A stretch of DNA of 56,783 nucleotides, taken from positions 1-56,783 of the forward strand of contig QHXI01000067.1 in the NCBI GenBank assembly GCA_003222895.1, in the 5' to 3' direction. Position numbers and translations under genes: made by a program. A model generated the notes under the pieces. It worked only from the letters and a program-made list of their open reading frames with translations. It was not told the origin of the DNA and did not search any database. The stretch comes from Acidobacteriota bacterium. GTDB taxonomy: Bacteria; Acidobacteriota; Blastocatellia; Pyrinomonadales; Pyrinomonadaceae. This document shows positions 27,273-50,577 of this stretch, piece after piece. How positions within the stretch are numbered: the first letter of the stretch is position 1; each line of letters opens with the position of its first letter.

Positions 27273-27414
27273 AGTGCCGTAGGCGCTCAATCTTTATAGA
27301 AACGAAGGCCAATCTATATTCGTCCGCAGCGAGCGAAAATGCCGAACATTTCGCTCGATGCGGTAAGCTTTCGAGGTACTAAGCTAGCTATAAACATTCT
27401 GCCGCTCTGCGGCG
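27273..27414. repeat. REPIN-like element, family A, copy 1
   Basis: Left unit 27273-27299 (AGTGCCGTAGGC... ending TTTATAG), right unit 27388-27414 in inverse orientation (CTATAAACATTCT then GCCGC-TCT-GCGGC). Central palindrome 27324-27363: CCGCA, then CGAGCGAAAATG / CATTTCGCTCG, then TGCGG. It fills the gap between the STAND gene and the 3' end of the SPFH gene. Confidence 0.78.
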
Positions 27415-29954: not shown

Positions 29955-30100
29955 AGCTCCGGAGGAGCGGAATATTTATAGCAGTCAGAGCTCATTTTGT
30001 AACTATGTGTCGAATCGAGGGAATCGCGCGATTCCGCTCGGTTCGGCACTTTGAAATTATGGAAAGATTGAACTATAAACATTTCGCGCCTAACGGCGCT
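29955..30100. repeat. REPIN-like element, family A, copy 2
   Basis: Left unit 29955-29981: AG, hairpin GCTCC-GGA-GGAGC, then a GGAATATTTATAG tail. Right unit 30073-30100 inverse: CTATAAACATTTC then GCGCC-TAAC-GGCGC. Central palindrome 30011-30045 (CGAATCGAGGGAATCG / CGATTCCGCTCGGTTCG). It lies between the divergent amidase and mdh genes. Confidence 0.78.
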
Positions 30101-41355: not shown

Positions 41356-41432
41356 TGGTGCCCCCGGCGCGATTCCAACGCGCGACCTCTCGCTTAGGAG
41401 GCGAGCGCTCTATGCAACTGAGCTACGGGAGC
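41356..41432 (-). tRNA. tRNA-Arg (anticodon CCT)
   Basis: 77 nt cloverleaf on the minus strand. Acceptor GCTCCCG pairs with CGGGGGC (one G-T), discriminator A, and CCA is encoded (41358-41356). D arm GCTC...GAGC, anticodon stem CTCGC / GCGAG with loop CTCCTAA (anticodon CCT), T stem GCGCG / CGCGC with loop TTGGAAT. Two invariant positions differ: C56 is G (TTGG for TTCG) and, in the D loop (AGTTGCAT), G19 is C, so the G19-C56 tertiary pair appears swapped to C19-G56. Confidence 0.95.
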
Positions 41433-50436: not shown

Positions 50437-50577
50437 AGTGCCGTAGGCACGAGATGTTTATAGCTCACACTGTTTGTTTTGAGGGTTCGTGAAATGAGCA
50501 AATGCAACAGCATTTTGCTCATTTCGCTATTATGAATGTGGACATGCTTTCAATAAATATTTCGCCGCTACACGGCT
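50437..50577. repeat. REPIN-like element, family A, copy 3
   Basis: Left unit 50437-50463: AGTGCC-GTA-GGCAC hairpin then GAGATGTTTATAG. Right unit 50551-50577 inverse: CAATAAATATTTC then GCCG-CTACA-CGGC. Central palindrome 50488-50527 (GAAATGAGCAAATGC / GCATTTTGCTCATTTC). Lies between convergent genes. Confidence 0.78.

What the first reader, a model, noticed from the sequence alone, without database searches (positions are those of the whole stretch)
27273..27414. Three-copy REPIN-like family (A) with compensatory hairpins and variable central palindromes
Elements at 27273-27414, 29955-30100 and 50437-50577 share one architecture: a 27-nt unit (hairpin, then a tail ending TTTATAG), a central perfect or near-perfect palindrome whose sequence differs in each copy, and the same unit inverted. 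Within the units the stems differ but still pair (GTGCC/GGCAC versus GCTCC/GGAGC), so structure is being kept. REPINs of gamma-proteobacteria are known to be moved by RAYT (Y1-type) transposases; no RAYT lies in this window, so the elements would be non-autonomous.
Basis: partly seen in the sequence, partly recalled or inferred. Interest (0 to 1): 0.75.

Follow-up and report, generated by a model that had tools for sequence, protein, structure and literature searches.

The report
Hairpin-ended mobile repeats with transposase partner
Three short hairpin-ended repeats in a bacterium's DNA belong to a genome-wide family that matches the ends of a small transposase gene, which points to a substrate for a transposase class that was reported to have no such repeats.

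Summary
Confirmed and extended. The three elements share one plan: outer hairpin, 6 nt, TTTATAG, ~24-nt arm, central palindrome, arm, CTATAAA, 6 nt, outer hairpin. The strict pair occurs 46 times in the genome against 1 for the reversed pattern; a unit model gives at least 87 loci.

The family is REPIN-like but not of the GTAG/RAYT kind. One of 8 Y1-transposase hits in the genome is flanked by the same units. It passes the IS200 model, not the RAYT model, and has the Y---Q--HH signature of TnpAY1 subclass 1.2, for which Quentin et al. 2018 list no REP. The unit flanks 11 of 13 relatives of >=58% identity and 0 of 16 below, and many Bacteroidota homologues.

Outer stems covary. Left and right stems of one element avoid identity: 16 of 148 against 31.7 expected. 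Central palindromes vary freely yet pair. At ten orthologous pairs hairpin units keep 85% identity, arms and flanks 60%.

Best reading: non-autonomous elements moved, now or formerly, by this transposase through single-stranded DNA. Movement itself is not shown. Host: probably Acidobacteriota.

The parts
27273..27299 (+). element 1, left outer unit: 5-bp hairpin (GTGCC/GGCGC, one G-T pair), 6 nt, TTTATAG
27300..27387 (.). element 1 interior: arm 27300-27323, central hairpin 27324-27363 (15-bp stem, 1 mismatch, 10-nt loop), arm 27364-27387
27388..27414 (-). element 1, right outer unit: CTATAAA, 6 nt, hairpin (GCCGC stem, unlike the left stem)
29955..29981 (+). element 2, left outer unit (GCTCC/GGAGC); conserved at the orthologous site in G002, G005 and G006
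29982..30072 (.). element 2 interior with central hairpin 30007-30049 (one bulge); the palindrome differs in the orthologues of G006 and G002
30073..30099 (-). element 2, right outer unit (CTATAAA + GCGCC/GGCGC hairpin); hairpin part 20/20 identical in G002
50437..50463 (+). element 3, left outer unit (GTGCC/GGCAC); a solo copy of this unit sits at the orthologous site in G003
50464..50550 (.). element 3 interior with central hairpin 50489-50527
50551..50577 (-). element 3, right outer unit with decayed heptamer (CAATAAA) and hairpin

Best explanation
The elements are miniature, non-autonomous derivatives of a small insertion sequence whose only gene is a Y1 (HUH-tyrosine) transposase of the IS200-like subclass 1.2. 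SHOWN: gene-bearing loci have the same ends as the short elements (outer hairpin, 6 nt, TTTATAG, ~26-nt arm, inner hairpin), with tnpA standing where the short elements have only a loop; the family is dispersed, mostly intergenic, paired and covarying, and goes with this transposase and its close relatives. INFERRED: the transposase binds the outer hairpins on single-stranded DNA, the TTTATAG/CTATAAA heptamers are the cleavage or end-pairing sequences, and the central hairpin holds the two ends together. Left and right outer stems are kept different so that each folds by itself (a clover form) instead of pairing with the other into one long dead-end hairpin. The central palindrome is free in sequence because only pairing matters, and it may be re-perfected by template switching or inversion. 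Many copies sit at sites shared by related species and in genomes without the close transposase, so part of the population is old and resident.
For: 46 strict copies vs 1 for the reversed pattern; at least 87 loci at E<=0.1 with a unit model, a lower bound because only 150 of 1300 candidates were scored. In the own genome, tnpA has a left half-element upstream and two full elements downstream; gene-bearing elements with a left and a right half in L159/L066 and L067. Unit within about 400 nt of tnpA: own L016 yes, 0 of 5 other own Y1 genes that could be aligned; 11 of 13 relatives at >=58% identity, 0 of 16 below; 5 of 7 and 53 of 73 genome-contig loci; 196 units at 107 Y---Q--HH loci against 3.8 for permuted heptamers. 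Among 97 genomes, 10 of 14 with this close TnpA and 10 of 83 without it carry >=5 strict copies at over twice the control (p=9e-6). Covariation in the outer stem: 71 double-changed cells vs 26 shuffled. Non-identical ends: 16 of 148 identical vs 31.7 expected, 0 of 5000 permutations as low. Long central stems: 21 copies, 368 bp, 16 mismatches, 28.5% pairwise identity. An inverted loop and a paired stem change between orthologues. Solo left unit ending at TTTATAG in G003.
Against: No transposition event and no clean empty site with exact boundaries was found: three G003 insertions absent from the orthologous G000 stretch (L251, L250, L281) have ragged flanks. The G003 solo unit can also be a deletion at the 3-base microhomology TCA. 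Four of seven genomes of the genus carry 5-26 strict copies without the close transposase. Of 17 other tnpA-bearing genomes searched, 13 have no excess of strict pairs over control, most of the Bacteroidota among them. Unit-bearing and unit-free transposases are not two clean clades (14 changes on the tree, 26.9 when shuffled). Hairpin units stay conserved at orthologous sites, which a dead insert would not need.
Confidence: 0.75

Rival explanations
1. Resident structured sequences with a host function (mRNA 3' end protection, bidirectional termination, topological marks), once spread by a transposase but now kept by selection on the host.
For: Hairpin units 85.4% identical at ten orthologous pairs vs 59.5% arms and 60.2% near flanks, while random unit pairs are 65.8% alike; copies in genomes without the close transposase; 40 of 48 copies between genes by a home-made gene call.
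Against: No marked orientation preference: tandem 27, convergent 7, divergent 6 of 40, against 63/12/25% for random intergenic placement. Presence varies between species: no element 1 seen in 6 of 6 relatives. No T-run after the hairpins (sequence). Orthologues were recognised through intact heptamers, which favours well-kept copies.
Confidence: 0.17
2. True REPINs of a RAYT transposase with GTAG REPs.
For: Same overall plan: inverted hairpin doublets, spacer hairpin with compensatory changes, Y1 transposase nearby (PMC3116915, passages; PMC3733652, section 16).
Against: NCBIfam RAYT cut-off not met; Y motif YIQNQERHH, not the Y---NP type listed for the class 2 (TnpAREP) subclasses; no GT[AG]G foot, the fixed tag is CTATAAA at 6 nt.
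Confidence: 0.03
3. The copies were spread as passengers of a classical MITE with terminal inverted repeats.
For: Three G000 and three G003 copies align far beyond the outer hairpins, inside one element of about 250-276 bp with inverted ends; a strict scan for those ends found L056 and a second carrier in L036.
Against: The other strict G000 copies show no shared sequence beyond the outer hairpins in the listing (by eye).
Confidence: 0.03
4. Outward promoters or site-specific recombination sites: CTATAAA resembles a -10 box, and the fold resembles an attC site (both resemblances recalled).
For: TATAAA points outward at both ends (sequence).
Against: Arms that would hold a -35 box are not conserved; the 46 copies are dispersed over many contigs. 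Promoter scans and integrase association were not tested.
Confidence: 0.02

Closest known systems
REPINs (REP doublets forming hairpins) of Pseudomonas, PMC3116915 (passages read)
   Same: Inverted hairpin doublets, mostly extragenic, many copies, spacer that keeps length and pairing with compensatory changes, Y1 transposase linked to the repeats.
   Different: No GTAG tag, fixed TTTATAG heptamer 6 nt from the hairpin, stems of the two ends mostly different, highly variable 5-bp stems, partner below the RAYT cut-off.
TnpAY1 subclass 1.2, Quentin et al. 2018, PMC6006769 (abstract, sections 12, 17, 18, 38 and passages read)
   Same: 153 aa vs median 148; DHIH; WQ; Y---Q--HH; Bacteroidota among the carriers.
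   Different: [quoted passage not shown] Here 69 of 107 Y---Q--HH loci examined have the structured unit nearby, also in Acidobacteriota. Their REP search required a GTAG/GTGG foot.
IS200/IS605 insertion sequences (IS608, ISDra2)
   Same: HUH-tyrosine transposase passing the IS200 model; hits to the solved ISHp608 transposase and relatives; hairpins near both ends.
   Different: Two hairpins per end, near-palindromic overall layout, one unit-flanked tnpA but dozens of gene-less copies in the own genome.
TIRYT/TIRtrons, including Acidobacteria, Di Nocera et al. 2013, PMC3733652 (section 16 and passages read)
   Same: Tyrosine transposase flanked by inverted repeats, some self-complementary, some with genomic families.
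   Different: Described in other acidobacterial genera, part of them with a GGGGWSAS motif; whether the proteins or repeats belong to the same group was not tested.
PATEs of Haloquadratum (search listing only, PMC3119063; description recalled)
   Same: Small palindrome-bearing elements linked to IS200/605 transposases.
   Different: Archaeal; not compared by sequence here.

Membership tests
REPIN | two hairpin repeats in inverted orientation at fixed spacing, dispersed in the genome | tested here: met
   46 strict pairs, control 1; outer stems 93.5% paired
REPIN | spacer conserved in length and pairing, with compensatory changes | tested here: met
   central stem score above the null maximum of 8 in 34 of 46 copies; the other 12 (element 2 of the window among them, because of a bulge) score 5-8; compensatory changes between orthologues
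REPIN | GT[AG]G (or CGTC) tag at the hairpin foot | tested here: not met
   foot is mostly YATTTC with CTATAAA beyond; on the other side only an A at -1 is enriched
REPIN | associated with a RAYT | tested here: not met
   associated Y1 gene scores 38.7 against the RAYT cut-off of 80
IS200/IS605 family transposase | HUH plus tyrosine Y1 domain over curated cut-off | tested here: met
   NF033573 69.4 vs 55, PF01797 94.4 vs 23
IS200/IS605 element | insertion 3' of a fixed target without target duplication, single-strand circle | tested here: inconclusive
   one solo unit ending at TTTATAG in G003, also explained by microhomology deletion; three other sites ragged
TnpAY1 subclass 1.2 | DH[IV]H, WQ, Y---Q--HH, short protein | tested here: met
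   153 aa with DHIH, WQ, YIQNQERHH against the table and text of PMC6006769; the paper's own sequences were not compared
TnpAY1 subclass 1.2 | no REP-like repeats (as reported) | tested here: not met
   units at 69 of 107 Y---Q--HH loci examined, 196 units vs 3.8 control; the 80 genome-contig loci are the best of 526
TIRYT/TIRtron | TIRs with GGGGWSAS motif and TIRYT protein signature | not tested
   no sequences of that paper were compared
classical TIR MITE | long terminal inverted repeats shared by copies | tested here: not met
   seen only for a 3-copy subset in G000

The most novel reading that the evidence does not exclude
A third superfamily of REP-like repeats, tagged CTATAAA at 6 nt from the hairpin, is the substrate of the 'REP-less' TnpAY1 subclass 1.2 in Acidobacteriota and Bacteroidota. 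Its two ends are kept non-identical as a single-strand fold lock: each end must fold alone, and copies whose ends could pair with each other are lost or immobile.
Probability: 0.6. Interest if true: 0.75.

Novelty: new variant of a known kind. Interest (0 to 1): 0.6.

Why it matters
The 2018 classification of Y1 transposases left subclass 1.2 without REP-like repeats. If these units are its substrate, an orphan group becomes testable, REP-like systems gain a new tag and new phyla, and the non-identical ends give a sequence-level test of the idea that REPIN-like elements must fold as a clover rather than a long hairpin to move.

Tried and rejected
Rfam on the window at gathering thresholds: only a tRNA. 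Exact insertion boundaries from orthologous sites: flanks too diverged. Near-identical copies L032/L056/L061 looked ideal for boundaries but are passengers of a larger element with inverted ends; they were left out of the test but are in the earlier version of it (5 of 89 identical vs 12.4). Pairing of alignment A2 in one register (76%) under-counts because four-base loops are misregistered; one search allows both loop lengths. A2 holds 90 of the 96 units (six left out by hand). A first unit census lost loci to strand errors and had a weak control; replaced, which could not align 2 of the 8 own Y1 hits (L022, L023), though a pattern scan saw no unit near them either. The tree used 81 of 115 proteins: 48 of 80 genome-contig loci picked by hand, short rows dropped. 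The threshold in the 97-genome table was chosen after seeing the counts; G010 and G032, whose listed copies look real, fail it. In one search the G003/5/6 set has 54 of 55 strict places (one G003 match that looked like plain coding sequence was not fetched) and may still hold a complex orthologue of L036 (L241/L243); the G008 set is 20 fetched stretches out of 41 strict places. Promoter scan, structure prediction and phage, plasmid and metagenome searches were not run. Literature searches: no listed title or passage seen describes a TTTATAG/CTATAAA-tagged repeat; the library holds only open-licence papers.

Full report
OBSERVATION. Each has an outer unit of 27 nt (hairpin with 5-bp stem and 3-4-nt loop, six bases close to GAAATR, then TTTATAG), an arm, a central palindrome, an arm, and an inverted unit. 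Element 3 has CAATAAA in its right unit. The strict pair TTTATAG-N75..105-CTATAAA is found at 46 places in the 4.77-Mb genome and the reversed pattern at 1. A covariance model of 90 outer units gave 145 hits at E<=1 in the genome (only 150 of 1300 first-look candidates were scored, so this is a floor); merged with the strict pairs this makes 87 loci at E<=0.1 and 94 at E<=1. In the 757 kb held (39 stretches centred on elements plus the window), 92 of 117 TTTATAG belong to strict pairs; 11 of the other 25 have a partner heptamer with at most one mismatch. So this is mostly one paired element, not scattered single repeats.

STRUCTURE. Allowing loops of 3 or 4, 93.5% of outer-stem cells pair in G000 (96 units) and 93.6% in G003/G005/G006 (106 units), against 73% when the two strands are taken from different copies, 0 of 500 shuffles as high. 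In one fixed register, 71 cells carry double changes against 26 shuffled. Central palindromes: the best ungapped stem beats the null maximum in 34 of 46 copies; 12 score 5-8. By a simple cut, 21 of 46 have one long stem of 15 or more bp and a loop up to 5 nt (368 stem bp, 16 mismatches, 12 perfect, apex-aligned pairwise identity 28.5%, near random); the other 25 mostly show, by eye, two small hairpins, often different ones. As single-stranded DNA, five of five folded copies form both outer hairpins and the central hairpin; in three of five the heptamers pair with each other in the minimum-energy structure.

NON-IDENTICAL ENDS. Within one element the left and right stems are identical less often than chance in every set: G000 3 of 41 (6.2 expected), G003/5/6 2 of 36 (4.3), G008 5 of 22 (10.3), G072 6 of 27 (8.0), G051 0 of 22 (2.9); pooled 16 of 148 against 31.7, 0 of 5000 permutations as low (passengers of the larger element and the eight orthologues of G000 copies removed, elements without two recognisable hairpins dropped: 45, 42, 22, 29 and 26 before that cut). 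Only G008 and G051 are below 0.05 alone. Copies are related by descent, so the permutation is not a clean probability; after collapsing to distinct stem pairs per set, 5 of 62 are homotypic. My reading: ends that could pair with each other would lock the strand into one long hairpin. Bertels and Rainey proposed such a less active hairpin versus a clover for REPINs (PMC3116915, passages).

PARTNER. The genome has 8 PF01797 hits, one of them under the cut-off, none on the window's contig. Only L016 carries the unit: a TTTATAG unit about 50 nt before a 153-aa ORF, and two full elements after it, one with TTTATGG. In relatives, L159 (same protein as L066) and L067 show the simple form: left half, tnpA, right half. 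The protein passes the NCBIfam IS200/IS605 model and not the RAYT model, matches solved IS200/IS605-type transposases, and has DHIH, WQ and YIQNQERHH, the signature given for TnpAY1 subclass 1.2 (PMC6006769, sections 17 and 18). That paper reports this subclass as generally without terminal IS200 structures and lists REP 'no'; its REP search demanded a GTAG or GTGG tetranucleotide (section 38). Here, exact TTTATAG with a hairpin at 6 nt lies within about 400 nt of the gene in 11 of 13 relatives at 58% identity or more (37 units, control 0.33; two of the 13 lie close to a contig end) and in 0 of 16 below; in 5 of 7 genome-contig loci that are acidobacterial or of unnamed phylum (20 vs 0.1) and 53 of 73 others, mostly Bacteroidota (138 vs 3.2); in 0 of 5 other own Y1 genes that could be aligned. 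Several unit-free proteins also have Y---Q--HH, three own ones among them, so the unit goes with a part of the subclass. On a tree of 81 proteins the unit label is clustered (14 changes, 26.9 shuffled, 0 of 500 as low) but is not one clade. Dispersed copies with matching hairpins also occur in the Cytophagales genome of L165 (20 vs control 9) and in that of L164 (22 vs 8, phylum unnamed). Of the other 15 genomes reached through tnpA loci, two acidobacterial ones exceed control (22 vs 0, 5 vs 1) and 13 do not (an 18th was not held).

CO-OCCURRENCE. Of 97 genomes (own included), 14 have a TnpA of this close group (61% identity or more); 10 of these have five or more strict copies at over twice the control, against 10 of 83 without it. 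The exceptions matter: G002 (10 contigs, 96% complete) and G005 (30 contigs, 100%) hold 16 and 26 copies without the close gene, and G067 and G090 have the gene and no strict copy. Populations outlast the transposase, or another Y1 protein serves them.

EVOLUTION AT FIXED SITES. No element is seen in the stretch beside the right-hand gene of element 1 in 6 of 6 genus relatives (only G005 aligns on both sides). Element 2 is present in G006, G002 and (interrupted by extra sequence) G005, not seen in G001 and G004, site not covered in G003. At the site of element 3, G003 has a solo left unit ending at TTTATAG, G005 a different element, G006, G002 and G004 none seen, and G001 reads N. Comparison anchored on masked flanks found eight further G000 copies with an orthologue, four in G003 and four in G005 (54 loci queried). 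Over ten orthologous pairs (element 2 of the window used twice) the 20-nt hairpin part is 85.4% identical, arms 59.5%, centre 70.7%, flanks at 30-90 nt 60.2%; hairpins exceed arms in 9 of 10 pairs, bootstrap range of the difference 0.17 to 0.34; random unit pairs are 65.8% and random arms 46.0% alike. Between L028 and its G003 orthologue the central loop ATGGTT reads AACCAT, its exact reverse complement, and a stem position changed on both sides: the palindrome can invert in place, which fits template switching at a hairpin. Caveat: orthologues were recognised through intact heptamers, so well-kept copies are favoured.

CONTEXT. With a simple codon-scored ORF call, 40 of 48 copies lie between genes (tandem 27, convergent 7, divergent 6) and 8 overlap predicted ORFs; random 140-bp stretches fall between genes about one time in ten. 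Random intergenic placement gives about 63% tandem, 12% convergent, 25% divergent, so there is no strong tie to gene ends.

TAXON. G001 and G004, of its genus, carry TnpA sequences identical to those of records titled Blastocatellia bacterium UBA11740 and Acidobacteria bacterium gp4 AA26. Acidobacteriota, Blastocatellia, is therefore likely (inference).

VERDICT. A REPIN-like, non-autonomous family of an IS200-type subclass-1.2 transposase. What appears new is the tag, the partner, the phyla and the avoidance of identical ends. Mobility and cutting remain to be shown.

Noticed in passing
L032:2091, L056:9923, L061:9917 (G000); L272, L274, L275 (G003): One TTTATAG element rides inside a larger element of about 250-276 bp with inverted ends; a strict scan for the ends finds L056 and a second such element with a decayed copy at L036:10747-11042.
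   Followed up: partly
L028:9986-10085 vs L279: Central loop is inverted in place between orthologous copies, with a paired stem change: a trace of palindrome inversion.
   Followed up: partly
L095, L108, L112 (G008); L161, L164: Outer hairpin units form tandem arrays outside the element (period about 25 bp in L108, about 51-52 bp in L161 and L164, by eye).
   Followed up: no
G005 orthologue of element 2 (L135, about 1850-2320): The element interior is split by extra sequence that itself seems to hold inverted repeats.
   Followed up: no
G000 loci L024-L062 and window: Other abundant repeats: 16-mers CGGTCGGGCTTCTGAC, GGGAGCGGTAGCGACC and ACTTGAAACCTGAAAC.
   Followed up: no
window 41359-41432 (-): tRNA gene, the only Rfam match in the window at gathering threshold.
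   Followed up: no
G010 and G032: A sister type of element (GAGTTCC/GGAAC inner hairpins, AT-rich arms) with near-identical copies, below the threshold used in the co-occurrence table.
   Followed up: no
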